NCBI GenBank assembly: GCA_017528425.1
Contig: JAFXOV010000024.1
Location: 62,001 to 126,000 of the forward strand
Length of the DNA: 64,000 bases
Reading direction: 5' to 3'
Source of the DNA: Elusimicrobiota bacterium
Lineage (GTDB): Bacteria; Elusimicrobiota; Endomicrobiia; Endomicrobiales; Endomicrobiaceae
Shown: positions 7,806-29,833 of the stretch, piece by piece
How positions within the stretch are numbered: the first letter of the stretch is position 1
Layout: every line of letters starts with the position of its first letter
Notes under the pieces: generated by a model
What the model was told of the DNA's origin: nothing
Databases searched by the model: none
The model's input: only the letters and a program-made list of their open reading frames with translations
Made by a program: the position numbers and the translations under genes

Positions 7806-7838
7806 ACTTGGACATTATTTATAGTTTGTTGATTTAAT

Positions 7839-7910
<72 letters not shown>

Positions 7911-7935
7911 ATTTTTTTATGCATAAGGAAAAATT

Positions 7936-8910
7936 ATGAAAGTTTTGCTTACGGGTGCTACGGGGTTTGTAGGAAGTCATATAGTAGAAGAACTTATTTC
8001 AAACAATCATACGATAGTTGCCACGGTAAGAAAAAGTTCCAATTTAAAATGGATTAAAGATTATCCTATTCAATATGAATATTGTTCTTTAAATGATGAA
8101 GAGCAATTATCAAAATTACTTTCAACTGTTGATGTTGTAGTTCATTGTGCCGGTGTTGTAAGAGCTTTGAATTGGGATGGTTATTACAATACCAATGTTA
8201 CAGGAACAAAAAATATTGTTCAAGCCGCAATAAAAAATAAAAGCAATATTAAAAAATTCATTTATATTTCTTCACAAGCAGCAATGGGTCCAAGTGCAAC
8301 AGAAGAACCTAAATTATTAACGGAAAAAGAAAATCCCGTTTCTTATTACGGCAAAAGCAAATTTTTGGCGGAACAAGAAGTAAAAAAATTGGAAGGAATT
8401 GTGCCTTATACTATTATAAGACCAGCTTCAGTCTACGGACCAAGAGATAAAGATATTTTTATTTTCTTTAATTTGGTTAAACATCATCTAAAGCCAAACA
8501 CTCATACTAAAAGATTTATTCAACTGGTTTTTGTAAAAGATATAGCAAAAGTTATTTCGACAGCATTAACTAACAAAGATACTAACAATAAAACTTATTA
8601 CCTTTGTGACGGTAACATTTATAGCTGGAAAGATGTTGCAACAACAATAGCAAAAGCAAACAACATAAAAACCATACCTATTATATTATTTGATTTCATT
8701 TTTAAAACTGTTGCTTGTTTTTATGAAGGTGTAGCAAAAGTTACAAAAAAGCCGCAAGTTTTAAGTAAAGAAAAAATTGTTGAAATGTTACAAACTTATT
8801 GGACTGCAGATAATTCGGATATAATAAAAGATACCGATTTTGAGTTTACAAAGCTTGAAAATGGTGCAAAAATAACATACAATTGGTACTTAAGTAATAA
8901 ATATTTTTAA
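7936..8910 (+). CDS. NAD-dependent epimerase/dehydratase family reductase, putative 3-ketosphinganine/ceramide reductase (CerR-like)
   Basis: The 324-residue product is an extended SDR. The nucleotide loop GATGFVGSHI is at residues 7-16 and the catalytic YxxxK is in SYYGKSKF near residue 140. The family reduces or epimerises carbonyl substrates with NAD(P)H. Its position 25 nt ahead of a serine palmitoyltransferase-type gene and a GNAT-type acyltransferase matches the bacterial ceramide gene set spt, bcerS, cerR known from Caulobacter; the reductase function is inferred from this context, because the SDR sequence alone would fit a sugar or steroid-type dehydrogenase equally well. AAGGA precedes the ATG. 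Confidence 0.7.
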   Translation: MKVLLTGATGFVGSHIVEELISNNHTIVATVRKSSNLKWIKDYPIQYEYCSLNDEEQLSKLLSTVDVVVHCAGVVRALNWDGYYNTNVTGTKNIVQAAIKNKSNIKKFIYISSQAAMGPSATEEPKLLTEKENPVSYYGKSKFLAEQEVKKLEGIVPYTIIRPASVYGPRDKDIFIFFNLVKHHLKPNTHTKRFIQLVFVKDIAKVISTALTNKDTNNKTYYLCDGNIYSWKDVATTIAKANNIKTIPIILFDFIFKTVACFYEGVAKVTKKPQVLSKEKIVEMLQTYWTADNSDIIKDTDFEFTKLENGAKITYNWYLSNKYF

Positions 8911-8935
8911 TACAAATTTTACTGTGGAGTGTTTT

Positions 8936-10267
8936 ATGTCTAACGATATTTTTGAAAAGTGTACTAAATTTACTGCAGCAAGAGATTTGCAAGCTGCAGG
9001 AATGTATCCATATTTTAAAAGAGTAGAAACCGTTCAAGGTCCCGTAGTTAAAATTGACGGAAAAGAAAAAATAGTTTTATGTTCTAATAACTATTTGGGA
9101 CTTGCCGATCATCCGAAAGTTATAGAAGGTGCTGTTGCTGCAGCAAAGCAATACGGAACATCTTGCACAGGTTCCAGATTCTTGAACGGCACAAACGATT
9201 TACATGAAAAAGTTGAAAGAAAATTTGCAAAGTTTGTAGGTAAAGAATCCGCGATACTTTTCACAACAGGTCACCATTCAAATTTAGGAGCGCTTTCTTC
9301 TTTGGTAGGTAAAGGTGAATTTGTTATTACGGATAAATTGGATCATGCTTCAATTATAGACGGTTGCAGACTTTCATTCGGCGGAGAAATGTTAAGATTC
9401 AGGCACAACGATATGGGTGATTTGGAAAGACAATTAGCAAAAGTTCAATCAAAAGGAACGTCCGCTTTAATAGTTGTTGACGGTATATTCAGTATGGAAG
9501 GAGATATAGCAAAGTTTCCCGAAATATCGGCACTTGCAAAAAAATACGGTGCAAGAGTTTATGTAGATGAAGCACATTCATTGGGTGTGCTTGGTAAAAA
9601 CGGAAAAGGGACAGGTGAATATTTTAATATGGAACCCGAAGTTGATGTTTTAATGGCAACAGCTTCAAAATCACTTGCTTCTATCGGTGGATTTATTGCA
9701 AGCAGAAGTGAAGTTATTAATTATATTAAACATACGGCAAGATCATTAATATTTACGGCAGCATTACCGCCTGCATGCGTAGGTGCAATAGATGTTGCTT
9801 TGGATATTTTACAAGATGAACCTGAAAGAAGAGCTAAACTTTGGGAAAACACAAACAAAATGAAAGAAGGTTTTCAATCTTTAGGATTTGATACAAGAAC
9901 ATCGGAATCTCCTATTATACCTATAACCGTAGGTGAAGATATGAAAGCTTTTCAAATGTGTGCAATGTTGTTTGAAGAAGGTATTTTTGCATCACCGGTA
10001 GTCAGTCCTGCAGTTCCGGAAGGTCAAGCTATAATAAGAACAAGTTATATGGCAACTCATACCGATGAACATTTGGAAATGATTCTTGATAAATTCGAAA
10101 AAGTTTCTAAACAACTCGGAATAATTCCGGGCGGAAACACAAGAACAAGAATGAAGAAAAAATCTTCAAGCAATATAAATAACAGAAGATGGAATTTTTC
10201 TTTTTCAAATAACAAATTTGCAGCCGCAACAAAAAGATGGTTCAAAAATTTGTGGTCTAACAAGTAA
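8936..10267 (+). CDS. spt: Serine palmitoyltransferase-type alpha-oxoamine synthase
   Basis: Alpha-oxoamine synthases are PLP enzymes that condense an acyl-CoA with an amino acid. The 443-residue product shows DHASIIDGCRLSFGG, the PLP-aspartate region DEAHSLGVLG, and the PLP-lysine motif ATASKSLASIGGF. The last matches the serine palmitoyltransferase form (SKS-ASIGGF) rather than the GTLGKA form of KBL or BioF; RTSYMATHTDEHL near the end fits too. SPT makes 3-ketosphinganine, the first step of sphingolipid synthesis. GGAG sits 6 nt before the ATG at 8936; a GTG at 8924 would overlap that site. The last 40 residues form an odd basic, Trp/Phe-rich tail that may bind membrane. Confidence 0.82.
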   Translation: MSNDIFEKCTKFTAARDLQAAGMYPYFKRVETVQGPVVKIDGKEKIVLCSNNYLGLADHPKVIEGAVAAAKQYGTSCTGSRFLNGTNDLHEKVERKFAKFVGKESAILFTTGHHSNLGALSSLVGKGEFVITDKLDHASIIDGCRLSFGGEMLRFRHNDMGDLERQLAKVQSKGTSALIVVDGIFSMEGDIAKFPEISALAKKYGARVYVDEAHSLGVLGKNGKGTGEYFNMEPEVDVLMATASKSLASIGGFIASRSEVINYIKHTARSLIFTAALPPACVGAIDVALDILQDEPERRAKLWENTNKMKEGFQSLGFDTRTSESPIIPITVGEDMKAFQMCAMLFEEGIFASPVVSPAVPEGQAIIRTSYMATHTDEHLEMILDKFEKVSKQLGIIPGGNTRTRMKKKSSSNINNRRWNFSFSNNKFAAATKRWFKNLWSNK

Positions 10268-10268
10268 A

Positions 10269-11378
10269 ATGTTTACCGTAAAGAAAATAGATTTTAAACA
10301 AATAAACGATTTTATAAAGTTACCTTATAAAATTTATAAAGGTAACCCTTATTGGATACCTCAATTAGATTCGGAAAACAAAAAGTTATTATCCGAAAAA
10401 AATCCTTATTGGAAACATGCAAAAAAGCAATTATTTTTGGCCTATGATGATAAAAACAATATCGTTGGAAGAATTGCCGGTATTATTGATTACAACTATA
10501 TAGAATTTCAAGAAACCGAAATAGGCTTTTTCGGTTTTTTTGAATGTATAGATAATGTAGAAGTTGCACAAATGTTGTTCGATGCGGTAAAACAATGGTT
10601 ATCGGAAAACAAGTTAGATAAGATGATGGGACCGATGAATCCGTCAACAAACGATGAAGTAGGCTTTTTATATGAAGGTTTCGATAGTGATCCGAAAATA
10701 TTAATGCCGTACACTCATAAATACTATTTAAATTTAGCAGAACAGTGCGGCCTTAAAAAAATAAAAGAACTTTATGCATACAATATTCCGGTTGCTTTAG
10801 ATGACAGAATGCCAAGACTTAATAAAGCATTAAGAATAGTTCAAAAAAGAAATCCTAACATAACGATAAAAACTTTCGACAAAAACAATTTCAAAAAAAC
10901 ACTTGAAGATATAATCGAAGTATATAATTCCGCCTGGGAAAAGAATTGGGGCTTCGTTCCGTGGACAAGAGAAGAATTCGAATCTATAGCGGACGACATT
11001 GTAAATTTGGCAGATCCAAATATTGTGATGCTTGCTTGTGACGGAGGTAAAACTATAGGAATGCTTATAGCTATTCCGGATTACAACTATGTATTCAAAA
11101 AAATGTACGGAAAATTGTTCCCGTTAGGTTTTTTAAAATTTTTGTATTATAAAAGAAAAGTTAAAGATTTAAGGCTTATGATAATGGGTGTAAAAAAAGA
11201 ATACAGACATAAAGGTATTGAAGCTTATATGTCTTTAGAAGCTCTTATAAATTCCGTTAAAGGCGGATACCAAGAATGTGAACTCTCCTGGATTTTGGAA
11301 GATAACGTAATGACTCAAAGAACCGCGGAAATGATGGGCGGATCAATATACAAAAAATACGCAGTATACGGAAATTAA
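10269..11378 (+). CDS. GNAT-type N-acyltransferase, putative bacterial ceramide synthase (bCerS-like)
   Basis: The 369-residue product has an N-terminal stretch with YKGNPYWIPQLDSENKKLLSEKNPY, then MMGPMNPSTNDEVGFLYEGFD, and a C-terminal GNAT-like half with IMGVKKEYRHKGIEAYM. It resembles the large GNAT-related proteins (YghO-like) that include bacterial ceramide synthase, which N-acylates the sphingoid base. It starts one base after the spt stop, so the two are translationally coupled, and rfbB follows by 4 nt. The ceramide role rests on operon context plus this resemblance; the alternative is an acyltransferase for another amine. Only weak ribosome-site sequence is present. Confidence 0.7.
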   Translation: MFTVKKIDFKQINDFIKLPYKIYKGNPYWIPQLDSENKKLLSEKNPYWKHAKKQLFLAYDDKNNIVGRIAGIIDYNYIEFQETEIGFFGFFECIDNVEVAQMLFDAVKQWLSENKLDKMMGPMNPSTNDEVGFLYEGFDSDPKILMPYTHKYYLNLAEQCGLKKIKELYAYNIPVALDDRMPRLNKALRIVQKRNPNITIKTFDKNNFKKTLEDIIEVYNSAWEKNWGFVPWTREEFESIADDIVNLADPNIVMLACDGGKTIGMLIAIPDYNYVFKKMYGKLFPLGFLKFLYYKRKVKDLRLMIMGVKKEYRHKGIEAYMSLEALINSVKGGYQECELSWILEDNVMTQRTAEMMGGSIYKKYAVYGN

Positions 11379-11382: not shown

Positions 11383-12357
11383 ATGAAAAATATTTTAGTA
11401 ACCGGCGGAGCAGGGTTTATAGGAAGCAACTTTGTAAGATACATGCTTAACAAGCATAAAGATTACAAAATAGTTAATCTTGATTTGTTAACCTATGCCG
11501 GCAACATAAAAAGTTTAGACGATGTAAAAGATAATCCTAATTATTTGTTTGCAAAAGGTGATATTGCCGACAATAAATTAGTTGATAAAATTGTTTCCGA
11601 CAACAAAATAGATGTGATAATAAATTTTGCAGCAGAATCTCATGTCGACAGAAGCATAACCAACCCCGATATATTCGTAAAAACAAATGTCTTGGGAACA
11701 CAAAACCTTTTGGAAGTAGCAAAAAAATATAAAATAGAAAAATTTTTCCAAATATCTACGGACGAAGTTTACGGATCGCTCGGGAAAACAGGTTTTTTCA
11801 CTGAAAAAACCCCCCTTTCGCCGAACAGTCCTTATTCCGCAAGTAAAGCAAGTGCCGACTTATTGGTTATGGCATACCATCATACTTTCGGCTTAAATGT
11901 TAATATTACAAGATGTTCAAATAATTACGGCCCTTATCAATTCCCGGAAAAATTAATTCCGTTATTTATTACAAATGCTCTCGATAATAAACAAGTTCCA
12001 TTATACGGTGACGGTTTAAACATTAGAGATTGGCTTTTTGTAGAAGATCATTGTTCAGCCATAGACACAGTATTACATAAAGGTAAAAACGGTGAAATTT
12101 ATAATGTCGGCGGTAACAATGAAAAAACCAACAAATATATTACAGATACAATTTTAAAATATTTGGGTAAGGACAGTTCATTAATAAAATATGTTGCCGA
12201 CAGATTAGGACACGACAGAAGATACGCTATCGATGCAACAAAAATTAAAGAAGAATTAGGTTGGCAACCTCAATACAAATTTGAACAAGCAATAGAAAAA
12301 ACAATAGAATGGTATTTGAATAATAAAGAGTGGTGGCAACCTTTGTTGGAAGATTAG
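11383..12357 (+). CDS. rfbB: dTDP-glucose 4,6-dehydratase
   Basis: RfbB converts dTDP-glucose to dTDP-4-keto-6-deoxyglucose, the entry to rhamnose and other deoxysugars. The 324-residue extended SDR has TGGAGFIGSNFV, the family mark NLDLLTYAGN, AAESHVDRSI, STDEVYG and the YxxxK in YSASKASAD. RfbA, RfbC and RfbD are not in the window, so the end sugar is unknown. It lies 4 nt after the acyltransferase gene as the last gene of the putative ceramide operon, which could mean the sugar decorates a lipid head group, or just that it feeds the polysaccharide locus downstream. Confidence 0.88.
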   Translation: MKNILVTGGAGFIGSNFVRYMLNKHKDYKIVNLDLLTYAGNIKSLDDVKDNPNYLFAKGDIADNKLVDKIVSDNKIDVIINFAAESHVDRSITNPDIFVKTNVLGTQNLLEVAKKYKIEKFFQISTDEVYGSLGKTGFFTEKTPLSPNSPYSASKASADLLVMAYHHTFGLNVNITRCSNNYGPYQFPEKLIPLFITNALDNKQVPLYGDGLNIRDWLFVEDHCSAIDTVLHKGKNGEIYNVGGNNEKTNKYITDTILKYLGKDSSLIKYVADRLGHDRRYAIDATKIKEELGWQPQYKFEQAIEKTIEWYLNNKEWWQPLLED

Positions 12358-12469: not shown

Positions 12470-13657
12470 ATGCAAAATTTTTTCAATTTTAAAAGTTTTA
12501 AAATATTTATTTTAATCTCATTATTATATTTATTAATAACTCTTTCTTGTTTGGTTATTTTTCTTCCGAATTGGATTTATGAGAATTTTGGAAAAATAAC
12601 TATAGAGCAGATATTATTTACTCTATTCTTACCTCTAAAAGGCACAAGCAATGAATTAGTAAATAGCTTTGTTAAAAAGTTATTGACACCTTCTTTTATA
12701 TGTTCTTCTTCTTTAATATTAATATTTTTAATTATTTACGATATAAAATATTTAAACAAACTTATTTTAAATAAATTTTACAAATTATTAACATTTGCAT
12801 TTAAAGGTCTAATCCTTATATACAAAAAATACACAAACTCAAAAACGGCTAAAAAATTCACAAAATATTCATTAATTTCCATAGCCGTTTTTCTCTTTAT
12901 ATTATTACCTGTTATCAATTTTATTCTACCTACGAAACAAAATAAATTTTATTATTCCAACAAACAAATTATAAATGAGAATTGTTTAATAGCACATGCT
13001 TGCGGACAAATAGACGGCAAAGACTATACAAACTCTTTGGAAGCAATAACACAATCAATAGAAAAAGGATATAAGTTTATAGAAATAGATTTATGCATTA
13101 CTGACGATAAAGAAATTGTAGCAATGCATGATTTAAATCATTTTATTCATATTACCGGCAATAAAAATATCGATAATAAATTCCATGATATTATAAATCA
13201 AAAAATATATAACAAATATACACCTTTAACGACTAAAGGAATAAATCAAATATTTAACACTAACAAAAACCTGGTTCTTGTTACGGATAAAATAACAGAT
13301 TACGATATTTTACTGGATAATTTTAAATTTAAAGACAGAATGATAGTTGAAGTGTTTTCCGTAAAAAAATACAAAGAAGCTCTTAGAAAAGGAATTTTAT
13401 ATCCTGCATTATGTATCGGGAAAAAAGAAAATTTCAAAGATGTTATAAAAGAAAACATTAGAATGGTTACGACATCTATTGAGTTTCTAAAACAAAATAT
13501 AGCTATATTTAAATATTTTCATAAAAAAGGTGTAGTTATTATGGTTTACGGAACACCTGAAATAAATGATGAACAATTTTTAAAAAACAATTTAGGGGTT
13601 ACATGCAGTTTAGCTTATGTAGATAGTGTTTTACCTAAGGATAAAGAAAATGATTAA
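12470..13657 (+). CDS. Membrane-anchored glycerophosphodiester phosphodiesterase-like protein
   Basis: The 395-residue product has four or so hydrophobic segments in its first 160 residues, then a GDPD-type domain: AHACGQIDGKDYTNSLEAI, FIEIDLCITDDKEIVAMHD. GDPDs use a metal and the H-x-G...N...E-x-D...HD residues to cut glycerophosphodiesters; here the first motif is HACG in place of the usual HRG. The domain after the membrane part seems shortened, about 235 residues. The gene overlaps the next one by 8 nt, and that neighbour also handles phosphoglycerol. Activity is inferred; the HRG change could mean altered chemistry. Confidence 0.7.
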   Translation: MQNFFNFKSFKIFILISLLYLLITLSCLVIFLPNWIYENFGKITIEQILFTLFLPLKGTSNELVNSFVKKLLTPSFICSSSLILIFLIIYDIKYLNKLILNKFYKLLTFAFKGLILIYKKYTNSKTAKKFTKYSLISIAVFLFILLPVINFILPTKQNKFYYSNKQIINENCLIAHACGQIDGKDYTNSLEAITQSIEKGYKFIEIDLCITDDKEIVAMHDLNHFIHITGNKNIDNKFHDIINQKIYNKYTPLTTKGINQIFNTNKNLVLVTDKITDYDILLDNFKFKDRMIVEVFSVKKYKEALRKGILYPALCIGKKENFKDVIKENIRMVTTSIEFLKQNIAIFKYFHKKGVVIMVYGTPEINDEQFLKNNLGVTCSLAYVDSVLPKDKEND

Positions 13658-15032
13658 AAAAATAGTTTTATTATTAATCACTTTCGTAATTATGAACTTG
13701 ATAACTATCGCTTATGGTATATATAAATTGGGATTACTCAACTTAAACTTAGATATTATTACTTTCTTAAGATATAATTTCGATTCTATACAAATATTGC
13801 CATTTATAAACATAATATTTTATTTAATAATAATTTTTACTTTGTTTCTAATTATTTTTAAATTTACAAAAACAAATAACTATTATAAATCTATTTTTAT
13901 TTTTTTTAGTATTATTTTATTGTTAGGAACTATAAAACTTTGTATTACCTACAAAGTTTTTTACTATATATCCCACAAATTAGAGACTAGTGATTTCTAT
14001 GAAAAACACTATGTCGATGCAAAACAAGTTTCGATACAAGTTCCGAAACAAAAAAAGAATCTTATTCTTATTTTTATGGAAAGTATGGAATTTACTTTTG
14101 CTGATAATAAATTTTTTAAAGAAAATCTTATACCGGAATTAACAAAACTATCAAACGAAAATATTTCTTTTAACAAACATCTTCAAGGTTATTTTCAAAA
14201 TAATACACAAATGTCTTTAGTTGCAACTATGACCGGTATTCCCAGTCGTGCAATTTTCATTGGTAAAAACTTTGGCAACAATGAAATCGGAAAAGAATTA
14301 AAAGAATATTTGCCTAATATTTATTCATTGCCTGACATTTTAAAAGATAACGGATATAATACAATGTTTATTCAAAGCGGAGATGTAGACTTTGCCGGAG
14401 CAAGGACTTTTTTACAACAACATAGCTTTGATTTCATAATGGGAGAAGAAGAACTAAGCAAATGTTTTAGTAATATAACTAAGAATGAATGGGGTGTTGA
14501 AGATAAATTCACTTTCGAAACACTAAAAAAAGAATTACTTCAAAATTACAAAACAGATATTCCTTTTTTCTTTACAATATTTACAACAGATACCCATTTT
14601 AATAACAATTCATCTATAACAGAAAGTAAAAATAAAATAAAACAAACATCTATATTGATTAGTGACTTTATAAATTGGTGTAATAAACAGAATTTTATTA
14701 AAGATACAACTATAATTATAATTGGAGATCATCTTAGAATGAAAGATCAATTCATTAGTGAATATTATGATAAAAGATACATTTATAATTGTTTTATCAA
14801 TTCAGTATATACTAACAAGAATGTAAACAAAAATCGAACCTTTTCTCAAATTGATTTATTTCCTACAATATTAGAAGCTCTTGGTTTTAAAATAGAAGGT
14901 TCCAAATTGGGACTAGGAACTTCTTTATTTTCAGATAAAAAAACTTTACTTGAAGAATTTGGTGAAGGAGAGTTAAATTCACAACTTGCAAAAAGAAACA
15001 AAATATATAACAATTTATGGAAAAGCAAATAA
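13650..15032 (+). CDS. Phosphoglycerol transferase, OpgB/LtaS-type (alkaline phosphatase superfamily)
   Basis: The 460-residue product has about four membrane segments up to residue 125 and then an extracytoplasmic sulfatase-like domain. Visible motifs are LIFMESME (metal-binding Glu), NTQMSLVATMTGIPSRA with the likely nucleophile Thr, TTDTHF and IIGDHLRMKD near the end. OpgB and LtaS enzymes take glycerol phosphate from phosphatidylglycerol and put it on glycans or teichoic acid, releasing diacylglycerol. The ATG at 13650 overlaps the end of the upstream gene; a GTG at 13626 is less likely. The acceptor here is unknown: a surface glycan, or a sphingolipid, are both possible. Confidence 0.8.
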   Translation: MIKKIVLLLITFVIMNLITIAYGIYKLGLLNLNLDIITFLRYNFDSIQILPFINIIFYLIIIFTLFLIIFKFTKTNNYYKSIFIFFSIILLLGTIKLCITYKVFYYISHKLETSDFYEKHYVDAKQVSIQVPKQKKNLILIFMESMEFTFADNKFFKENLIPELTKLSNENISFNKHLQGYFQNNTQMSLVATMTGIPSRAIFIGKNFGNNEIGKELKEYLPNIYSLPDILKDNGYNTMFIQSGDVDFAGARTFLQQHSFDFIMGEEELSKCFSNITKNEWGVEDKFTFETLKKELLQNYKTDIPFFFTIFTTDTHFNNNSSITESKNKIKQTSILISDFINWCNKQNFIKDTTIIIIGDHLRMKDQFISEYYDKRYIYNCFINSVYTNKNVNKNRTFSQIDLFPTILEALGFKIEGSKLGLGTSLFSDKKTLLEEFGEGELNSQLAKRNKIYNNLWKSK

Positions 15033-15845: not shown

Positions 15846-16820
15846 TTATCGTTTATAAAAATAAAAAAAATCATATAGCAATATCAACATTTTGTAAGAC
15901 GATATCACATATAAATAGAAATATTTTTTATAATAAAAGTAACTTATATTATACCTCTCTATTTCGAATACTTTTTTGAAAAAATTACTCTGCTTTTTAA
16001 AAGACAAGAATTTAAAATGGCTTGAAACTGTAAACATACAGTAGTTAATGTAACTTTGTTCAAACATTTTAAAAACTTTTTGTTTAATCAAATATTCCTT
16101 TATTGCTCCTAAAAAATTTTTACACAGAAAAATATACTCTTCTTCATTTATTTTCATTCTTGAAATTGAGGTCGATACCCCTCTTCTGTAGTATACAAGT
16201 TCTTTGTTTAACACATATATTCTTTTAGCAAAAATCATTGATATATGCGAAAAAAAAGAATCATTGTGTTTTTTTATATTTTGAAAAGAAATACCATTTT
16301 CTTTTATAAAAGATGTTCTATATAATTTATCCCAACACCATCCCATATGAAACTGAAAAGCATATTTAGGAATATCCGAACAAGAAAAAACTTCTTTATT
16401 AGGTAATAAACAATCTTTAATATTATTCTGCCCTTTAATATTACCATTATCAAAAATCTTTGATTTACAAACAACTATGTCCGTATTATATTTATCAGCA
16501 CAATTGTACATTTGTTCCAACATATCAAGTTCAAAAAAATCGTCAGAATCTAAAAAAGACAAATATTTACCTTGTGCAACGGACAAACCTTTATTTCTTG
16601 CAGCTCCAGCCCCTTCATGTTGTTGTTTTATAATTTTAATTCTTAAATCTTTGTTTGAATATTCATTTAAAATTGTCAAAGAAGAATCTGTTGAGCCGTC
16701 ATCGATACAAATAATTTCAATATCGGGCAATGTTTGATTAACAACACTATCCAAACATTGTCTTAAGTGTTTTTCTATGTTATATACCGGTATAATTACT
16801 GATACTTTAGGAATACTCAT
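15846..16820 (-). CDS. GT2 family glycosyltransferase
   Basis: The 324-residue product begins with the GT-A nucleotide-sugar fold: VSVIIPVYNIEKHLRQCLDSV, IDDGSTDSS and the metal-binding FLDSDDFF near residue 95. Donor and acceptor sugars cannot be read from sequence. The C-terminal 100 residues are rich in Phe, Tyr and Lys and probably lie on the membrane. It is transcribed 24 nt after glf, so it may use UDP-galactofuranose; that is inference from position only. Its end converges with the SPFH gene. Confidence 0.85.
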   Translation of the reverse strand: MSIPKVSVIIPVYNIEKHLRQCLDSVVNQTLPDIEIICIDDGSTDSSLTILNEYSNKDLRIKIIKQQHEGAGAARNKGLSVAQGKYLSFLDSDDFFELDMLEQMYNCADKYNTDIVVCKSKIFDNGNIKGQNNIKDCLLPNKEVFSCSDIPKYAFQFHMGWCWDKLYRTSFIKENGISFQNIKKHNDSFFSHISMIFAKRIYVLNKELVYYRRGVSTSISRMKINEEEYIFLCKNFLGAIKEYLIKQKVFKMFEQSYINYCMFTVSSHFKFLSFKKQSNFFKKVFEIERYNISYFYYKKYFYLYVISSYKMLILLYDFFYFYKR

Positions 16821-16844
16821 GTCTTAAATTTACTATCCAAAATT

Positions 16845-17960
16845 TTAACAAAATTCTCTGCTACAAAAATTTAATGCAGACTCTATAACTTGATCCATAT
16901 CATAATACTTATATTCTCCTAATCTTCCGCCGAAAAAAATGTTTTTTTCTTTATCAGCCAACTCTTTATATTTTAAATATAAGTTATTATTTTTCTCATC
17001 ATTAACAGGATAATAGGGCTCGTCTTCTTTTGTCCATTCCCTAGAAAACTCTTTTGAAATTACCGTTTTTGGCAAATCATTTCCTTTTTCATCTTTACCG
17101 AACATAAACCATTTATGTTCAATAATTCTTGTCCAAGGTATTTCTTTATCGGTATAATTAACCATTGCATTGCTTTGAAAATCCGGAATATTCAATATTT
17201 CATTTTCAAAATTTACCGTCCTGTATTCCAATGCCCCTAATTTATAATCAAAATATGCATCAATCGCACCGGTGTAAATAATTTTATCTGAAATCGAATT
17301 ATAATATTCTCTGTTTTTTAAATAATCTTCGTTTAATTTTACATCTATGCCAAATAACATATTTTCTATGAGTTTCGTGTATCCTTTGACAGGAATACCC
17401 TGATATAAAGCATTAAAATAATTATTATTGTAAGTAAATCTGACAGGTAATCTTTTTATAATAAATAAGGGAAGATCTTTACATTTTCTTCCCCACTGTT
17501 TTTCGGTATATCCTTTTATCAATTTTTCAAAAACGTCTCTACCTACCAAGTTGATTGCTTGTTCTTCCAAATTTTTAGGTTCACTTTTTATTTCTTTTTT
17601 CTGTTCATTTATTATTTTTTCAGCCTCTTCCGGTGTGTTTACCCCCCACATCTTATTAAATGTAAACATACTAAAAGGAAGTGAATATAATTGATCTTTA
17701 TAATTTGCTATAGGTGAAAAAATAAAATTGTTAAACGAAGAAAATTTATTTATAAAATTCCAAACAGCTTTGTTATTGGTATGGAAAATGTGAGGACCAT
17801 ACTTATGAACGTCTATACCTTCAATTTTTTCGGTATAAATATTGCCTGCAATATGGTTTCTCTTTTCTATTACTAATACTTTTTTACCTTTATCGGTTGC
17901 TTGTCTTGCAAAAACAGCGCCATATAGGCCACACCCAACAACCAAATAATCATATTTCAT
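16845..17960 (-). CDS. glf: UDP-galactopyranose mutase
   Basis: Glf is a flavoenzyme that interconverts UDP-galactopyranose and UDP-galactofuranose. The 371-residue product shows the FAD loop YDYLVVGCGLYGAVFARQA (a Cys in the usual GxGxxG), VIEKRNHIAGN, the family motif HKYGPHIFHTN, EKQWGRKCKDLP, and FGGRLGEYKYYDMD at the C-terminus. It shows that galactofuranose is part of the cell's surface glycan. AGGAAA is upstream of the ATG. It is divergent from the glycosyltransferase run that starts at 18044. Confidence 0.95.
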   Translation of the reverse strand: MKYDYLVVGCGLYGAVFARQATDKGKKVLVIEKRNHIAGNIYTEKIEGIDVHKYGPHIFHTNNKAVWNFINKFSSFNNFIFSPIANYKDQLYSLPFSMFTFNKMWGVNTPEEAEKIINEQKKEIKSEPKNLEEQAINLVGRDVFEKLIKGYTEKQWGRKCKDLPLFIIKRLPVRFTYNNNYFNALYQGIPVKGYTKLIENMLFGIDVKLNEDYLKNREYYNSISDKIIYTGAIDAYFDYKLGALEYRTVNFENEILNIPDFQSNAMVNYTDKEIPWTRIIEHKWFMFGKDEKGNDLPKTVISKEFSREWTKEDEPYYPVNDEKNNNLYLKYKELADKEKNIFFGGRLGEYKYYDMDQVIESALNFCSREFC

Positions 17961-18043
17961 ATTTTTCCTGATATTTTAAAATTTAAATCTCTTATTGTAT
18001 TTAGTATAATATACAAAATTTTTATAAATATTAGAATTCAGAT

Positions 18044-19057
18044 ATGAATATAGTTTACAAAGTATCGGTAATAATACCCATATATAATGTAGAGCCTTAC
18101 TTAAGACAATGTCTTGATAGTGTTTGTAATCAAACGTTTAAAGACATTGAAATTATTTGTATAAATGACTGTTCCACAGATAATTCCTTAAAGATATTAG
18201 AAGAATATCAAAAAAAAGATAACAGAATTGTTTTAGTCGATTTAACGGAAAACAAAGGTGTAGGTATTGCAAGAGATATAGGAATAAAATCAGCAAAAAG
18301 TAAATATGTAACTTTTATAGATCCTGATGATTGGATAAAGACTAATTATGTTGAAGTTCTTTACAATACTATAAAACGAAATGATACGGATTTTGTGGGT
18401 GCAGATTTTTACTTATATAAAGATGGTACTATAGTTGATAAAGCTACTAATATAAATCTTGTTTTCGATAAAATATTAACTAAAGAAAATATCAGAAGAA
18501 AATATTTACAACAATTAAACAATTTATCTATTTGTTTAGTATGGGCTAAAATATATAAGAAGGATTTTTTAATATCAAACAATATTTCTTTTGAAATAAG
18601 AAAGCTTGAAGATAATTTTTTTATGTGGCAAGTACTTATAAAAGCTAAAAGCTTTATGCTTATAAAAGACAAACTTCTTTATCATAGATTTGCAAGACCA
18701 GGATCTTCTGAAATTTCATACACTGTAGATAATAGATTATATTTATTTAAAAAGCTATACTCTTTAAGTCAACAAGATTACTATAGAAATTATCTTAAAG
18801 ATTTTTACACATACATATCAATATCTATTTCCTATTATATAGAGAATACAAATATTGCAGAAGCGAAATATTCTTTTTATGAATTTAAAAAATTATTTTA
18901 TAATGAAAATTTTAAATTAACTTATAAATATATAAATATACGAAACAAAATAAGACTATTCGTTTTCAATTTTTGTTTAAAACATAATTTAAATTATGTA
19001 AACATTGGAAAATTTCATCATAAATATAATCCTATTAGGCTGTTTACCGGGAAATAG
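18044..19057 (+). CDS. GT2 family glycosyltransferase, paralogue A
   Basis: The 337-residue product starts KVSVIIPIYNVEPYLRQCLDSV and carries INDCSTDNS; the metal motif is FIDPDDW, with Pro where the sister genes have Ser. A TATAAT at 18005-18010 may be its promoter. Its last 45 residues (IRNKIRLFVFNFCLKHNLNY...) are almost the same as those of the gene ending at 20940, and its first 200 bases closely match the gene at 22820, marking recent duplication or gene conversion within the locus. Confidence 0.85.
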   Translation: MNIVYKVSVIIPIYNVEPYLRQCLDSVCNQTFKDIEIICINDCSTDNSLKILEEYQKKDNRIVLVDLTENKGVGIARDIGIKSAKSKYVTFIDPDDWIKTNYVEVLYNTIKRNDTDFVGADFYLYKDGTIVDKATNINLVFDKILTKENIRRKYLQQLNNLSICLVWAKIYKKDFLISNNISFEIRKLEDNFFMWQVLIKAKSFMLIKDKLLYHRFARPGSSEISYTVDNRLYLFKKLYSLSQQDYYRNYLKDFYTYISISISYYIENTNIAEAKYSFYEFKKLFYNENFKLTYKYINIRNKIRLFVFNFCLKHNLNYVNIGKFHHKYNPIRLFTGK

Positions 19058-19082
19058 TCAAGTATATGTCGTAATAATTTAG

Positions 19083-19088
19083 TATAAT
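19083..19088 (+). promoter_or_regulatory. -10 box of a leaderless-type promoter
   Basis: TATAAT is followed by GCAACA and then the ATG at 19095. The consensus hexamer at 6 nt from the start codon predicts a transcript with no leader. No good -35 box is visible, so this could be chance in AT-rich DNA. Confidence 0.4.
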
Positions 19089-19094
19089 GCAACA

Positions 19095-19937
19095 ATGAAA
19101 ACAATAAAACAAAGAATCAAAACAAAATTTCCGATACTGGTAAAAATAATATATTTTCTTCGCGCAATAATATTAAGAAACAAACTTGAATTTATTGAAA
19201 TACATCTTGTTGACAGCTGTAATTTAAAATGTAAAGCATGTACTTCTTTTTCAAACATTACCACAAAAGCCAATTTTATTGATGCAAGATTATTAGGGAT
19301 CAGACTAAGCAAATTGACAAAACTTTTTACAATAGAACAGATACGCCTTGTAGGTGGAGAACCTCTCCTTCACCCTGATATAAACAATGTTCTAAAAATA
19401 GTCAGACAATGTTTGGGGTATTCGCAGATAGAATTGGTTACAAACGGCATTTTACTTAACAAAATGTCAAAAGATTTTTTTGAAACATGTTATAAAAACA
19501 ATATTAATATAATTATATCTCCATATCCTGTTTTAAAAAACAAAGAAGAAATTAAGCAAATTCTTTCGCCGTTTAAAATAAATTATAATTTTTTCCCAAT
19601 GATTTTTTCTTTTTCGGCAAACTTAAATCCAAAAGGAAATTCCAACAAAGAAGAAACTTTTAAAAATTGCAGATATACCCGTTACAAGACATTAAAGGAA
19701 GATAATATTTATACTTGTCCTATATGTGCGTACATTGACCAATACAACGAATATTTTAATAAAAACATACCTATAGGCAAAGGAATAAATATTTATACAA
19801 AATCAAGAAAACAAATTAAGAGTTATTTAAGTGAACCGGAAGAAACTTGTAAATACTGCACAAATTTAACAAAATATATAGATTGGGAATGTTCAAACAC
19901 TCCTAAAGAAACCGATTGGAACGGCAATTATGAATAA
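19095..19937 (+). CDS. Radical SAM protein of polysaccharide loci, copy 1
   Basis: The 280-residue product has the radical SAM CxxxCxxC cluster in CNLKCKAC near residue 43, preceded by FIEIHLVDS, and the SAM-binding GGE in RLVGGEPLLHPD. A C-terminal set of cysteines (NCRYTRY, YTCPICAY, CKYCTNL, ECSN) suggests a second, SPASM-like iron-sulfur site. It ends PKETDWNGNYE. The gene overlaps the next GT2 gene by 8 nt, and the same pairing recurs at 26657-28466. The substrate is not known; a sugar, a lipid-linked glycan or a peptide could all be modified. Confidence 0.8.
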   Translation: MKTIKQRIKTKFPILVKIIYFLRAIILRNKLEFIEIHLVDSCNLKCKACTSFSNITTKANFIDARLLGIRLSKLTKLFTIEQIRLVGGEPLLHPDINNVLKIVRQCLGYSQIELVTNGILLNKMSKDFFETCYKNNINIIISPYPVLKNKEEIKQILSPFKINYNFFPMIFSFSANLNPKGNSNKEETFKNCRYTRYKTLKEDNIYTCPICAYIDQYNEYFNKNIPIGKGINIYTKSRKQIKSYLSEPEETCKYCTNLTKYIDWECSNTPKETDWNGNYE

Positions 19938-20940
19938 TTCAAAAGTATCAATAATTATACCGGTATATAATGTAGAGAAATATTTAAGACAATGTCTTGA
20001 CAGTGTTATTAATCAAACGTTCAAAGATATTGAAATTATTTGTGTAAATGACTGTTCTCCCGACAATTCTTCACAAATAATAAAAGAATATCAACAAAAG
20101 GACAACAGAATAAATTTAATAAATTTAGAGAAAAACGGCGGACTTGCAAATGCAAGAAACGTAGGCATAAAAAATGCTAAATCCAAATATATCACTTTTG
20201 TTGATTCTGATGACTGGATGACAAGTGATTATATACAAGTTCTGTATACCAACATAGAAAAATTTAATTGCGATTTCACCGGTTCGGAATATTATCTTTA
20301 TAACGATATAACAAAAAAAATCTCCAACGGATATCCATATTGTAGTGTATACAACAGCAAAATAAATGATGAAAACATAAAAAAAACGTCTTTACTCAAA
20401 ATTACTTATGGTAGAGTATGGGCAACCATTTACAAAAAAGATTTTCTAACTTCAAACGATATTATTTTTAGAATTAATAAAATGGAAGACTTGTTGTTTA
20501 CATATGAAGCGATAATAAAAGCATCCAGTTTTTCTTTTGTAAAAAACAGACTTTATTATTACAGAATTGCGAGAAAAAATTCAAATGTATCTACATGTAC
20601 GATTTACGACAGGTTTGTTTTCCATGAACAACTTCAAAAACTGGATAATCTTGAGAGTTTTAAAAAGTATACCTCAGAATGTTACACATACATATTTGAT
20701 GATACTGCTATCCTCCTTGAACATAGTAAATTGCCATTTAGAGAACTATCAAAAATATTTTTTGATTTCAGAGAAAAAGTTTATGATAAAATATGCAAAA
20801 CAAGCTGTAAATATCTTAATTTTAGAAACAAAATAAGACTTTTTGTTTTCAATTTTTGTTTAAAACATAATTTAAATTATCTTATAATAGGTAAATTGCA
20901 TAATAAATTTAACCCTATAAGAATTTTTACTAAACGATGA
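19930..20940 (+). CDS. GT2 family glycosyltransferase, paralogue B
   Basis: The 336-residue product has VSIIIPVYNVEKYLRQCLDSVINQTF, VNDCSPDNS and the metal motif FVDSDDW. The start overlaps the radical SAM gene by 8 nt and the stop overlaps the next gene as ATGA, so all three are coupled. The C-terminal region repeats that of paralogue A nearly word for word. Donor and acceptor are unknown. Confidence 0.85.
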   Translation: MNNSKVSIIIPVYNVEKYLRQCLDSVINQTFKDIEIICVNDCSPDNSSQIIKEYQQKDNRINLINLEKNGGLANARNVGIKNAKSKYITFVDSDDWMTSDYIQVLYTNIEKFNCDFTGSEYYLYNDITKKISNGYPYCSVYNSKINDENIKKTSLLKITYGRVWATIYKKDFLTSNDIIFRINKMEDLLFTYEAIIKASSFSFVKNRLYYYRIARKNSNVSTCTIYDRFVFHEQLQKLDNLESFKKYTSECYTYIFDDTAILLEHSKLPFRELSKIFFDFREKVYDKICKTSCKYLNFRNKIRLFVFNFCLKHNLNYLIIGKLHNKFNPIRIFTKR

Positions 20941-21953
20941 ATCAAATTCTAACAAAAGTTTCAATAATTATCCCGGTATATAATGTGGAACAATATCTAA
21001 AACAATGCCTTGACAGTGTTATTAATCAAACTTTCAAAGATATTGAAATTATAGTTATTAATGATTGTTCTCCGGACAATTCATTACAAATTATAAAAGA
21101 CTATCAACAAAAAGATAACAGAATTGTTTTAATTGACTTAAAACAAAATGTTGGTATTGGTTTAGTTCGAAACGAAGGTTTAAAAATCGCAAAAGGTAAA
21201 TATGTAACTTTTATTGATTCAGATGATTGGATTGCGAATAATTATGTAGAAGTATTATATAATACAATAGAAAAATACCAATATGATGTAATAAGCCCTA
21301 ATTTCTATTCATATGATGAAACAACAAAAAAACTGTCTTTGGGAAAACAACCTCAATGTTTTTATAATATAAATATTTCAAATGTTAAATTAAAACAAAA
21401 ATTTCTATATTTTGAAAAAACTCACTATCTTAGGAAAATATTTAAATTAGACTTTTTAAGAAAAAACAATATTGTGTTTCATATAAACAAATTGGAAGAT
21501 ACTCTTTTTGTTTGGGAAGTTTTAATAAATACAAATAAATTCATGTTTATAAAGGATAAATTATATTATTACAGAACAAGTATCAATAATTCTTTTATTG
21601 ATAAAAATACAAAATGTAAAATAGAACTGCAAAACACAATAAATCTTGCTACGGAAATAAAAAAAGTTCTTGTTAAAAATTTTGATACTTATAAAAATTT
21701 TAAACCGGTATTAAATTCGTTTATTATGAACAGACTTTTCCCTTTATCCGGAAAATATCCTAATGAGTTTAAAAAATCCTATCCGGATTTTAAAAAAGAT
21801 TTTTTTGAAAATGAAAAAATAGAGTTTTATCATATAAACACAGTTGAATCTTTTGCTAAGATTTTTCTGTTTAAATTGTTATTCAAATTTAATATTAATA
21901 TCATGTTCTTATCAAAAGCTTATAACAAATTAAAAATCATGAGAAAAAAATGA
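20937..21953 (+). CDS. GT2 family glycosyltransferase, paralogue C
   Basis: The 338-residue product has VSIIIPVYNVEQYLKQCLDSVINQTF, INDCSPDNS and FIDSDDW. It shares long identical nucleotide runs with its neighbours in the first 300 bases, but its C-terminal third differs from paralogues A and B, which suggests a mosaic with a conserved catalytic half and a variable acceptor-binding half. ATGA overlaps link it to both flanking genes. Confidence 0.85.
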   Translation: MNQILTKVSIIIPVYNVEQYLKQCLDSVINQTFKDIEIIVINDCSPDNSLQIIKDYQQKDNRIVLIDLKQNVGIGLVRNEGLKIAKGKYVTFIDSDDWIANNYVEVLYNTIEKYQYDVISPNFYSYDETTKKLSLGKQPQCFYNINISNVKLKQKFLYFEKTHYLRKIFKLDFLRKNNIVFHINKLEDTLFVWEVLINTNKFMFIKDKLYYYRTSINNSFIDKNTKCKIELQNTINLATEIKKVLVKNFDTYKNFKPVLNSFIMNRLFPLSGKYPNEFKKSYPDFKKDFFENEKIEFYHINTVESFAKIFLFKLLFKFNINIMFLSKAYNKLKIMRKK

Positions 21954-22816
21954 ACAATAAAACTCTTGAAATAATTATCGTTAACTATAATTCTTCTTTT
22001 TGGCTAAAGAAAACTTTGGATTCAATATATAAATATTATATCCCCTACTCAAAACATTCAATTATTGTAACAGTTGTTGATAATGCAAGTTCCGATTCAT
22101 CAATAGAAATGTTAGAAAAAGATTATACTCAAATAAATTTAATAAAGTCGGAAAAAAATGTCGGCTTTTCCGCAGGAAACAATATTGCATTAAAGAAATC
22201 GAATGCGGATTACATAATGTTATTAAATTCCGATACGGAACTTACGGAAAAATCAAAGAATTTAGATACTCTTATTGATATTATTGAAGAAGATGACAGT
22301 ATAGGAATGATAACACCGAAATTAGTATTATCAAACGGTCAAATGGACAAAGCTTGTCACAGAGGTGAGCCATCGATATTGGATTGTTTTTTATATTATG
22401 CAGGTTTTGAAAAATTGTTTCCGAAAACAAAATTTTTCACACACTATCACCTGTTACACAAAGATTTAAATACTATTCATCAGGTAGAAGCAATAACAGG
22501 TGCTTGCATGATAACGAAATTAAAATACTTTAAAGATGTTGATTTCTTTGATGAAAGATTTTTCATGTATAGTGAAGATATGGACTTATGCAGAAAATAT
22601 AGAGAAAAAGGATACAAAATATTATTTAATCCGACTGTGGAAATTATTCATCACAAATATAAATCCGGATTAAAGAGTAAAAATAAAAAAGTTAGCAAAA
22701 ATATAAAAAGACATTTTTATAATTCTTTTTTATTATATTATGACAAATGGTATAATAACAAATTCTATTATAAAATTTTAAGACCATTTTTTGTTTTAGC
22801 AGTAAAAATTATATAA
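21950..22816 (+). CDS. GT2 family glycosyltransferase, rhamnosyltransferase-like
   Basis: The 288-residue product differs from its neighbours. It has IIIVNYNSSFWLKKTLDSI, VVDNASSDSS, GFSAGNNIAL, the metal site LNSDTEL, TGACMITK, and FFDERFFMYSEDMDLCRKYREKGYKI. This set is typical of the GT2 branch containing rhamnosyl- and galactofuranosyltransferases. With rfbB (deoxysugars) and glf (galactofuranose) in the window either donor is plausible. It starts in an ATGA overlap with the preceding gene. Confidence 0.85.
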   Translation: MNNKTLEIIIVNYNSSFWLKKTLDSIYKYYIPYSKHSIIVTVVDNASSDSSIEMLEKDYTQINLIKSEKNVGFSAGNNIALKKSNADYIMLLNSDTELTEKSKNLDTLIDIIEEDDSIGMITPKLVLSNGQMDKACHRGEPSILDCFLYYAGFEKLFPKTKFFTHYHLLHKDLNTIHQVEAITGACMITKLKYFKDVDFFDERFFMYSEDMDLCRKYREKGYKILFNPTVEIIHHKYKSGLKSKNKKVSKNIKRHFYNSFLLYYDKWYNNKFYYKILRPFFVLAVKII

Positions 22817-22819
22817 GAA

Positions 22820-23845
22820 ATGAATAATATAAAAATATCAGTAATTATCCCTGTATACAATGTAGAACAATATTTAAGACAATGTCTTGATAGTGTTATC
22901 AATCAAACGTTTAAAGATATTGAAATAATTTGTATAAATGACTGTTCTATAGATAATTCCTTAAAGATATTAGAAGAATATCAAAAAAAAGATAACAGAA
23001 TAAAGATTATAGATCTAAAAGAGAACAAAGGAGTTTCATATTCCAGAAATATTGGTTTAAAACTTGCAAAAGCAGAATATGTAACATTTGTTGATTCCGA
23101 TGATTTTGTAAGTAGTAATTATACCGAAATTCTTTATAACAATATTAAGAAATTCGACTATGATGTTTTATGTTGTGACTTCTTTTTATATTATAACGAG
23201 AACTCAGCAAAACATCTTGAACAGAAATCGTTCTGTTATAACACTGATTTTAATACGGTTCAATCAAAACAGAAATTACTTACATACAGACTTATATGGA
23301 GTTCATGGGCAAAAATATATAAAAGAGACTTTCTTGAAAAAAACAAAATCTTCTTCAAAAGAAGGACAATGGAAGATATTTTGTTTATTTATGAAATTAT
23401 TTTAGTTTCGAACAAAGTAAAATTCATAAATGAAAGCATTTATTTTTATAGGCAAGACAGAAAAAGCTCTATTATGAGCAACAAAACCGGTAGATTTTAT
23501 TCTTGTATAGAGTTGTTATACGATATAAAAAATTTATTGATACAGAAGCAACTATTTGAAACATACGAACAACAGTTCTATTCTTATGGATTTTTACTTT
23601 TGGCAGCAGAACTTGAAGTTATAAATCTGCCTAATGAAAAAACCAAACAAGCTCTAATATCTTTAAAGAAAAATTTGTTTGTAAAAAATTCCATAAAAAT
23701 AAAAACCTATGATAAATTCCCTTACAAGATAAGGCTTTTTATTTTTTATTTTTGTTTTAAACACAATATTAATTATAGCTCAATAGGTAAGACATTAAGA
23801 AAATTGTATTCCTTTGTTAAGAGGCAGGATTTTAATGCTAAATAA
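22820..23845 (+). CDS. GT2 family glycosyltransferase, paralogue D
   Basis: The 341-residue product has ISVIIPVYNVEQYLRQCLDSVINQTF, INDCSIDNS and the metal motif FVDSDDF. Over about 115 bases after position 22887 it is almost identical to paralogue A. It starts 3 nt after the rhamnosyltransferase-like gene and its end overlaps the polymerase gene by 11 nt. Confidence 0.85.
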   Translation: MNNIKISVIIPVYNVEQYLRQCLDSVINQTFKDIEIICINDCSIDNSLKILEEYQKKDNRIKIIDLKENKGVSYSRNIGLKLAKAEYVTFVDSDDFVSSNYTEILYNNIKKFDYDVLCCDFFLYYNENSAKHLEQKSFCYNTDFNTVQSKQKLLTYRLIWSSWAKIYKRDFLEKNKIFFKRRTMEDILFIYEIILVSNKVKFINESIYFYRQDRKSSIMSNKTGRFYSCIELLYDIKNLLIQKQLFETYEQQFYSYGFLLLAAELEVINLPNEKTKQALISLKKNLFVKNSIKIKTYDKFPYKIRLFIFYFCFKHNINYSSIGKTLRKLYSFVKRQDFNAK

Positions 23846-25187
23846 TAAAACTTTTAATAAAATTGTAGATATTTTATTTTTATTGATTCCGTTTATTGAC
23901 TTTACATACTCTTTTGACTTTGATTTTGCAGATATAAGACTTTCTTATTTAATATACCTGCTTTATTTTGTAGCAAATATCAATTTAATATTAAAAAAAG
24001 AGCTGATTTATGATTTACTAAAAAAATCAAAATATTTAATAATTATTTTTTCATTTATTATTGCAATCTCAATTGTAAACATTTATTTAAATAATGATAC
24101 TATCTTTCTTTTATCAAAACAAGTTATTATTATTTCTTTTGTTTTTTTCACCACATGGTTATTTTTTTATAAACACAAAAATAACATTCATGAAATATTC
24201 AACTTATATTTAAACATTTCATTTGTTGTGGCATTAATAGGTATCTTTCAGGAATTATCATATTTAATAGGTTTTTCTTATGGCTATGACTTTAGTTATT
24301 GGAAAGCAAAAAGTCAATTAAGTAATGCCGGAATATTTTTTAGAGTTTCTTCCATAGCGGGAGAACCTTCAAATTTAGTTTATGCTTTATCTTTAGCTTT
24401 TTATACGGCATTAGTATGTTTTATTACAAAGCAGGAAAAACCAATACTAAACATTTCTAAAAGCATTGTAATTATATTGTGTTTTGCATTAACTTTTTCT
24501 TTAATCGGATATATTGGTATTGTAATATCTCTTATATTTGTAGCAACAATCTATTTTAAAAGAATTAAAGTTGTTAAGCTTTTAATTGTCTTGTGCTTAT
24601 TTGCTACGTTATTTTGTTTGGGAAGTAATACATTTACGATGAGAATAGCGCAAACTTCATTGGAAATACAAAAAGTGATAAACAAACAAAATTTAAATAA
24701 TGATCAACAGCAACAATGGATTAATCCATCAAGTTATTCAATAATCCTTCAAGCTAAAATAAGTTTTACAAATTTTAAAAAACATTTTCTTTTCGGAACA
24801 GGATTAGGCTCTCATTTGGTAGCTTTTAATAAATATTATGAATTGTTTCACTACGAGAAGGAACAAAAATTATTACATAAACCGGATGCAGCATCCTTGT
24901 TTCTAAGATTATTATCAGAGTTGGGACTTTTTGGAATATTCTTAATAAGTTTCTTCTTATTACGGTTTAATATTTTCTTACCAAAATACAACTCTAATTT
25001 GGATTTTTTTGTGATTTTAAATTATGGATGTTTATTATTTATTATTCTAAGACTTATTAGATGCGGAGTTTATTATGCGGATGGTTTTTTTATTTTTGCG
25101 TTAGTATATTATTACACAAAAAAGTTTTATATAAAAAATAAAAATGGACAAAACAAACAAAATGATTTTTCCGATTCAAATACCTAA
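23835..25187 (+). CDS. O-antigen/polysaccharide polymerase-like membrane protein (Wzy type)
   Basis: The 450-residue product is almost entirely hydrophobic, with ten or more membrane helices and one large loop around residues 275-345 (HKPDAASLFLRLLSELGLFGIF follows it), the layout of the Wzy/O-antigen ligase family. In such loci Wzy joins repeat units on undecaprenyl pyrophosphate at the periplasmic face. I chose the ATG at 23835 because GAGGCAGGA precedes it; a TTG at 23814 gives no better site. The flippase gene overlaps its end by 44 nt. Family level only. Confidence 0.7.
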   Translation: MLNNKTFNKIVDILFLLIPFIDFTYSFDFDFADIRLSYLIYLLYFVANINLILKKELIYDLLKKSKYLIIIFSFIIAISIVNIYLNNDTIFLLSKQVIIISFVFFTTWLFFYKHKNNIHEIFNLYLNISFVVALIGIFQELSYLIGFSYGYDFSYWKAKSQLSNAGIFFRVSSIAGEPSNLVYALSLAFYTALVCFITKQEKPILNISKSIVIILCFALTFSLIGYIGIVISLIFVATIYFKRIKVVKLLIVLCLFATLFCLGSNTFTMRIAQTSLEIQKVINKQNLNNDQQQQWINPSSYSIILQAKISFTNFKKHFLFGTGLGSHLVAFNKYYELFHYEKEQKLLHKPDAASLFLRLLSELGLFGIFLISFFLLRFNIFLPKYNSNLDFFVILNYGCLLFIILRLIRCGVYYADGFFIFALVYYYTKKFYIKNKNGQNKQNDFSDSNT

Positions 25188-27478: not shown

Positions 27479-27482
27479 CTTT

Positions 27483-29828: not shown

Positions 29829-29833
29829 AATTA

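What the first reader, a model, noticed from the sequence alone, without database searches (positions are those of the whole stretch)
7936..11378. Putative bacterial ceramide synthesis operon with rfbB
Three genes packed 25 nt and 1 nt apart encode a CerR-like SDR, an alpha-oxoamine synthase with the serine palmitoyltransferase form SKS-ASIGGF around the PLP Lys, and a large GNAT-type protein. This is the gene set that makes ceramide in Caulobacter, where the reductase acts on the sphingoid product. A fourth coupled gene, rfbB, suggests deoxysugar use, for example in a glycosphingolipid. Sphingolipids in a low-GC diderm of this kind would be unexpected. The function is established for the family, while its assignment here is inference.
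Basis: partly seen in the sequence, partly recalled or inferred. Interest (0 to 1): 0.82.

Follow-up and report, generated by a model that had tools for sequence, protein, structure and literature searches.

The report
Ceramide-making gene operon in Elusimicrobiota
A rumen bacterium of the phylum Elusimicrobiota carries three adjacent genes that most likely make ceramide, the core of sphingolipids, and the same genes recur across most of its phylum, even in endosymbionts with very small genomes, so sphingolipids are probably an old and ordinary membrane part of these bacteria.

Summary
At 7936-11378 lie an SDR, an alpha-oxoamine synthase and a tandem-GNAT acyltransferase, separated by 25 and 1 nt, with rfbB 4 nt further on. 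The synthase groups with bacterial serine palmitoyltransferases (Sphingomonas, Sphingobacterium, Parabacteroides) and apart from KBL/BioF; a clade with KBL/BioF is rejected (p-AU 0.0048). The GNAT matches, over its full length, the bCerS-position proteins of SPT clusters in Sphingomonas, Roseomonas, Klebsiella and E. coli. The SDR falls in one clade (99/98) with the SDRs of such clusters. The gene set is that of Caulobacter ceramide synthesis minus its ACP/acyl-ACP-synthetase genes.

The organism is an Endomicrobiaceae MAG (Elusimicrobiota). The GNAT occurs in 161 of 199 Elusimicrobiota genomes. SPT and GNAT are present or absent together (77 both, 10 neither, 3 discordant of 90) and are adjacent nearly everywhere, including the cultured Endomicrobium proavitum and endosymbionts of 0.5-0.8 Mb. 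LpxC is retained, so sphingolipid does not replace LPS.

The rfbB part is not supported: it is the genome's only rmlB, rmlA and rmlC lie elsewhere, and it is linked only in the rumen-side lineage. No lipid data exist; function is inference. No held paper reports this for Elusimicrobiota.

The parts
7936..8910 (+). cerR-like extended SDR (324 aa), predicted 3-keto-(di)hydroceramide / 3-ketosphinganine reductase; Rossmann GATGFVG at residue 7, YxxxK at 138, no room for a signal peptide
8936..10267 (+). spt: alpha-oxoamine synthase (443 aa), predicted serine palmitoyltransferase; PLP lysine K245; basic C-terminal tail (residues 397-443, net charge +12)
10269..11378 (+). bcerS-like tandem-GNAT N-acyltransferase (369 aa), predicted ceramide synthase
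11383..12357 (+). rfbB/rmlB, dTDP-glucose 4,6-dehydratase; the only copy in the genome; probably co-transcribed but not part of the ceramide pathway
7838..7911 (+). tRNA-Met (CAT) directly upstream of the operon; boundary marker, not part of the pathway

Best explanation
The three genes 7936-11378 are a ceramide-synthesis operon. The PLP-dependent synthase condenses L-serine with a long-chain acyl thioester to 3-ketosphinganine; the tandem-GNAT protein adds the second acyl chain to the amino group; the SDR reduces the 3-keto group, giving dihydroceramide for the envelope (probably outer membrane) beside LPS. Shown here: gene presence, family placement of the three proteins, conserved order, and co-occurrence across the phylum. 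Inferred: substrates, order of the last two steps, acyl donor (acyl-CoA or housekeeping acyl-ACP, since no dedicated ACP/ACS gene is linked), head group and location. rfbB is a passenger that serves dTDP-rhamnose synthesis for the cell.
For: Synthase: best PDB relatives are Sphingobacterium SPT (8guh/3a2b, 400 bits) ahead of KBL/BioF (314) and cysteate acyltransferase (257); NCBIfam SPT NF047600 516 bits against KBL 399 and BioF 389; tree puts it with the SPTs and apart from 8 KBL/BioF (96/81, 98/93), AU test p 0.0048 against joining KBL/BioF; GSRFLNGT and SKSLAS motifs as in SPT, 0 of 4 KBL/BioF-diagnostic residues. GNAT: full-length matches to proteins in SPT clusters of Sphingomonas parapaucimobilis, Roseomonas, Klebsiella, E. 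coli (E 1e-56 to 1e-58). SDR: the top plasmid hits are overwhelmingly in records or strains that also carry the SPT and GNAT; one clade 99/98 with their SDRs. Order conserved in Endomicrobiaceae. Across 90 Elusimicrobiota genomes SPT-like and GNAT: 77 both, 10 neither, 3 discordant (Fisher p 1e-10, relatedness not corrected).
Against: No lipid analysis. The synthase scores below NCBIfam's equivalog cut-off (516 against 640), so the model's authors would not name it SPT on score alone. Serine specificity cannot be read from sequence; alanine or other amino acids are possible. No solved structure was found for the GNAT family; its fold is a generic tandem GNAT. Two reduced endosymbionts keep the GNAT (one shown also to keep the SDR) without an SPT, so the genes can outlive the pathway. 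Several outer lineages lack the SDR beside the pair.
Confidence: 0.86

Rival explanations
1. The operon makes a ceramide analogue, not ceramide itself: the synthase uses alanine, cysteate or another amino acid, giving 1-deoxysphingolipids or sulfonolipids.
For: Alpha-oxoamine synthases differ by amino acid with little sequence change; 1-deoxy and unusual sphingolipids were found in anaerobic waters and Spt was proposed to take other amino acids (PMC11334938). The synthase is only about 50% identical to proven SPTs.
Against: SPT structures score 400 bits against 257 for cysteate-C-fatty acyltransferase; it sits among SPTs in the tree.
Confidence: 0.1
2. The synthase is a KBL- or BioF-type enzyme and the neighbours are an unrelated SDR and GNAT.
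For: Same superfamily; NCBIfam KBL and BioF models also match.
Against: Tree, AU test, residue comparison and PDB ranking all favour SPT. Where a second, lower-scoring synthase exists in the same genome it lies apart from the SPT-GNAT pair. The GNAT and SDR track SPT in distant phyla.
Confidence: 0.03
3. A four-gene glycosphingolipid operon in which rfbB supplies a deoxysugar for the ceramide head group.
For: rfbB follows by 4 nt and is adjacent in most rumen-clade relatives; glycosyltransferases lie from 16 kb on.
Against: rfbB is the sole rmlB of the genome, rmlA (contig C58) and rmlC (C34:43766) are elsewhere; inserts part the genes in L014, L018 and L020; rfbB is absent beside the operon in termite Endomicrobium and other classes.
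Confidence: 0.05

Closest known systems
Ceramide synthesis genes of Caulobacter crescentus: spt, cerR, bcerS plus acpR and aasR (CC_1162, CC_1164, CC_1154, CC_1163, CC_1165; PMC9386255, PMC11087976)
   Same: Same three core protein families; full-length similarity of all three to alphaproteobacterial cluster members (Sphingomonas parapaucimobilis L080, Roseomonas L081).
   Different: No dedicated ACP or acyl-ACP synthetase gene with it; all three genes are contiguous, whereas the bcerS gene lies apart in Caulobacter, Sphingomonas and Roseomonas. The Caulobacter proteins themselves were not on hand and were not compared directly.
Bacteroidota-type SPT (Sphingobacterium multivorum, PDB 3a2b/8guh; NCBIfam NF047600)
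   Same: Closest proven enzyme to the synthase; no linked ACP gene.
   Different: About 50% identity, 516 bits against the cut-off 640; the Endomicrobiaceae sequences form their own clade (100/100), not a branch within Bacteroidota.
Spt-like/bCerS/CerR clusters of about 40 phyla in Black Sea MAGs (PMC11334938)
   Same: Same gene set and co-localisation; our loci from Ignavibacteriota, Zixiibacteriota, Verrucomicrobiota, Planctomycetota, Calditrichota show it too.
   Different: Elusimicrobiota is not named in that paper's main text; its supplements could not be read here.

Membership tests
Serine palmitoyltransferase | Groups with proven SPTs and not with KBL/BioF in a tree | tested here: met
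   96/81 and 98/93 branches; AU p 0.0048
Serine palmitoyltransferase | PLP lysine and SPT-type motifs (GSR-LNGT, SKS-AS-GGF) | tested here: met
   K245
Serine palmitoyltransferase | Score above the NCBIfam equivalog cut-off (NF047600, 640); a naming rule of that model, not a property of the enzyme | tested here: not met
   515.7 bits; still the best of all alpha-oxoamine synthase models; the model's name (CFB) points to Bacteroidota sequences. For this reason the gene is called SPT-like by homology, not a certified equivalog.
Serine palmitoyltransferase | Makes 3-ketosphinganine from L-serine | not testable with these tools
   needs enzyme assay
Bacterial ceramide synthase (bCerS) | Full-length homology to the acyltransferase of alphaproteobacterial SPT clusters | tested here: met
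   E 6e-58 to Sphingomonas, 8e-57 to Roseomonas; shared W-L-N motif near the C-terminus
Bacterial ceramide synthase (bCerS) | Co-occurs with SPT | tested here: met
   87 of 90 genomes concordant
Ceramide reductase (CerR) | Same clade as SDRs of SPT clusters, apart from other epimerase-type SDRs | tested here: met
   99/98 branch, with long branches among the outside rows; top hits lie in SPT-bearing records
Ceramide reductase (CerR) | Periplasmic location as in Caulobacter | tested here: inconclusive
   Rossmann motif starts at residue 7, no signal peptide visible, but the same holds for Sphingomonas, Klebsiella and E. coli cluster SDRs
Caulobacter-type five-gene set | Linked acyl carrier protein and acyl-ACP synthetase | tested here: not met
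   none among the annotated neighbours; AMP-binding proteins occur elsewhere in the genome
dTDP-glucose 4,6-dehydratase (RmlB) | Above equivalog cut-off TIGR01181 | tested here: met
   518 bits, cut-off 365

The most novel reading that the evidence does not exclude
Sphingolipids are an ancestral, near-universal envelope component of Elusimicrobiota, made beside LPS and kept under strong selection even in flagellate endosymbionts whose genomes shrank to 0.5-0.8 Mb, some of which then lost only SPT and may depend on sphingoid bases from their protist host.
Probability: 0.45. Interest if true: 0.68.

Novelty: new member of a known kind. Interest (0 to 1): 0.5.

Why it matters
It adds, on genomic evidence, a phylum to the likely sphingolipid makers, and one with cultured members, so a lipid extract could settle it. 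Endomicrobiaceae live in the rumen and inside termite-gut protists; bacterial sphingolipids are known to shape host interactions in Bacteroidota, and retention in strongly reduced endosymbiont genomes points to a role worth testing. It also shows that the ceramide gene set is compact and contiguous outside Proteobacteria and stands without a linked dedicated ACP.

Tried and rejected
KBL/BioF identity of the synthase: rejected by tree, AU test and residues. Recent transfer from Bacteroidota: the Endomicrobiaceae synthases form their own 100/100 clade, and the SDR tree branches class > order > family > genus as vertical descent would. Replacement of LPS: rejected, LpxC found in 187 of 199 genomes including this one. 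rfbB as part of the pathway: not supported. Head-group genes: the GDPD-like (12470-13657) and phosphoglycerol-transferase-like (13644-15032) genes downstream looked tempting, but L010, L012 and L020 have band-7 there instead, so no claim is made. PDB search with the GNAT profile gave only generic GNATs; Foldseek confirms a tandem GNAT but names no function. Calling the Bacteroides SDR in L139 an orthologue of BT_0972 was considered and dropped: the proven enzyme is about 31 kDa (PMC9278070) and was not compared.

Full report
What is there. The window is 30% G+C. The nearest public genomes are Endomicrobiaceae from the rumen, e.g. Candidatus Ruminimicrobiellum ovillum and R. bubulum, with 96-97% identical GNAT proteins, so this is a MAG of the phylum Elusimicrobiota. 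LpxC in the genome and Lnt in the window agree with a diderm that makes lipid A.

The synthase is an SPT by homology. Against the PDB its best hits are Sphingobacterium SPT (400 bits), then KBL/BioF enzymes (314 and below), Sphingomonas SPT (about 274), cysteate acyltransferase (257). Among NCBIfam models the Bacteroidota SPT model is clearly first (516 bits), though below its equivalog cut-off of 640. A maximum-likelihood tree of 59 sequences places all Endomicrobiaceae sequences (100/100) with Sphingomonas, Roseomonas, Klebsiella, Sphingobacterium and Parabacteroides SPTs and apart from eight KBL/BioF sequences (96/81; inner branch 98/93). Holding the Endomicrobiaceae together with KBL/BioF is rejected (p-AU 0.0048). 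The window has 5 of 8 residues diagnostic for the SPT references and 0 of 4 diagnostic for KBL/BioF. By the kind of criterion used in the Black Sea study (clustering with known Spt; PMC11334938) it would count as Spt-like.

The GNAT is bCerS-like. In 72,556 plasmid records only 45 have a match to it, 44 over at least 80% of its length, and the better ones lie in SPT clusters: Rubrobacter, Streptomyces, Aureispira, Sphingomonas parapaucimobilis, Roseomonas, Klebsiella michiganensis and E. coli. Similarity to the alpha- and gammaproteobacterial proteins is full length (E 1e-56 to 1e-58). The Sphingomonas cluster, with SDR, ACP and SPT side by side and the GNAT 6 kb on, corresponds to the Caulobacter genes CC_1164, CC_1163, CC_1162 and CC_1154 described in PMC9386255. 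AlphaFold2 gives a confident model (mean pLDDT 92.5, pTM 0.89) whose nearest solved folds are tandem GNATs.

The SDR is CerR-like. SDRs are common, so a match alone says little; but of the highest-scoring plasmid matches most are in records or strains that carry the SPT and GNAT, and in a tree the SDRs of SPT clusters from many phyla, the window's included, form one clade (99/98) apart from the other epimerase-type SDRs tested. Long branches among those outside rows make the boundary less sure than the support suggests. In Caulobacter CerR is periplasmic and proposed to act after bCerS (PMC11087976); no signal peptide is visible in the window protein, but neither is one in the proteobacterial cluster SDRs, so the order of steps stays open.

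Distribution. The order SDR-SPT-GNAT is kept in 13 of the 14 Elusimicrobiota loci (the contig of L017 begins at SPT), in other families and classes of the phylum, and as an SPT-GNAT pair in further lineages. The GNAT is found in 161 of 199 Elusimicrobiota genomes. In 90 of these searched for the SPT, scores fall into two classes: about 350 bits or more (usually beside the GNAT) and at most about 315 bits as best hit in genomes of this set without it. Counting the upper class as SPT-like: 77 genomes have both, 10 neither, 2 only the GNAT (G001, G017), 1 only the SPT (G046, which sits at a contig end); Fisher p 1.2e-10 (the genomes are related, so the p value overstates). In 48 of 49 genomes whose coordinates I compared by eye, the two are neighbours (exception G008). 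G023 is Endomicrobium proavitum Rsa215: its contig is 1,588,979 bp, the published chromosome length (PMC4505116); it has the intact operon at L105. G034 (1,643,562 bp, one contig) is probably Elusimicrobium minutum (length from memory). Reduced genomes of 0.5-0.8 Mb (G132, G106, G114) keep all three genes.

rfbB. It is a genuine rmlB and the only one above cut-off in the genome (518 bits, next 192). rmlA is on another contig and rmlC about 26 kb upstream of the operon, outside the window. In relatives it is missing beside the operon (termite Endomicrobium) or separated by radical-SAM or small genes (L014, L018, L020). A role in a glycosphingolipid is therefore not indicated.

Mechanism, with status. 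SPT makes 3-ketosphinganine from serine and an acyl thioester (inferred from family); bCerS N-acylates (inferred); CerR reduces the ketone (inferred). Which acyl carrier is used is unknown: the linked ACP and acyl-ACP synthetase of Rhodobacteria (PMC9386255) are absent, AMP-binding enzymes exist elsewhere. Head group unknown.

Novelty. Known enzymes and a known kind of cluster, in a phylum for which I found no report: no held paper combines Elusimicrobi* with serine palmitoyltransferase, none of those with Endomicrobia or Elusimicrobiota and sphingolipid is about it by title and abstract, and the Endomicrobia genome study does not mention sphingolipids (PMC11257099). The Black Sea study counts 38 phyla and may include Elusimicrobiota in supplements I could not read. 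Hence: new member of a known kind, interest moderate.

Noticed in passing
L101 (G017) about 7895-8137: A 1.1-Mb relative of the endosymbiont genus keeps an intact SDR and GNAT, but between them only a short piece resembling the SPT N-terminus remains; G001 of the same genus also has the GNAT but no SPT-like gene. Possible host-lipid dependence or early decay of the pathway.
   Followed up: partly
8936-10267, residues 397-443 of the synthase: Basic C-terminal tail of about 46 residues (net +12) in the rumen clade and in other orders and families of the class, absent in termite Endomicrobium; perhaps a membrane anchor.
   Followed up: partly
L015 6997-8034: The SDR is only 54% identical to the window's while the neighbouring SPT is 93% identical: possible replacement of the reductase gene alone.
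   Followed up: no
12470-15032: GDPD-like membrane protein followed by a phosphoglycerol-transferase-like (OpgB-type) protein; L011 has the first after rfbB, L010, L012 and L020 lack both. An LTA-synthase-family gene also follows the SPT-GNAT-SDR cluster of Rubrobacter radiotolerans (L082).
   Followed up: partly
L083 (Klebsiella michiganensis IncFIB plasmid) and L140 (E. coli yghO region): Complete SPT-ACP-SDR-acyl-AMP ligase-GNAT clusters next to lptF/lptG-like genes in Enterobacteriaceae, the first on a plasmid typed as conjugative.
   Followed up: no
15846-30607: Large cluster of family-2 glycosyltransferases with UDP-galactopyranose mutase, O-antigen ligase-like and flippase-like genes and two radical-SAM genes, not kept in order in relatives L010, L012 and L020.
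   Followed up: no
L021 11281-12192; L105 12935-13843: In termite Endomicrobium a lipid A acyltransferase family gene follows the operon directly (L021, by Pfam); in E. proavitum a similar-looking gene (not searched) lies further down, after an SMC-like gene.
   Followed up: no
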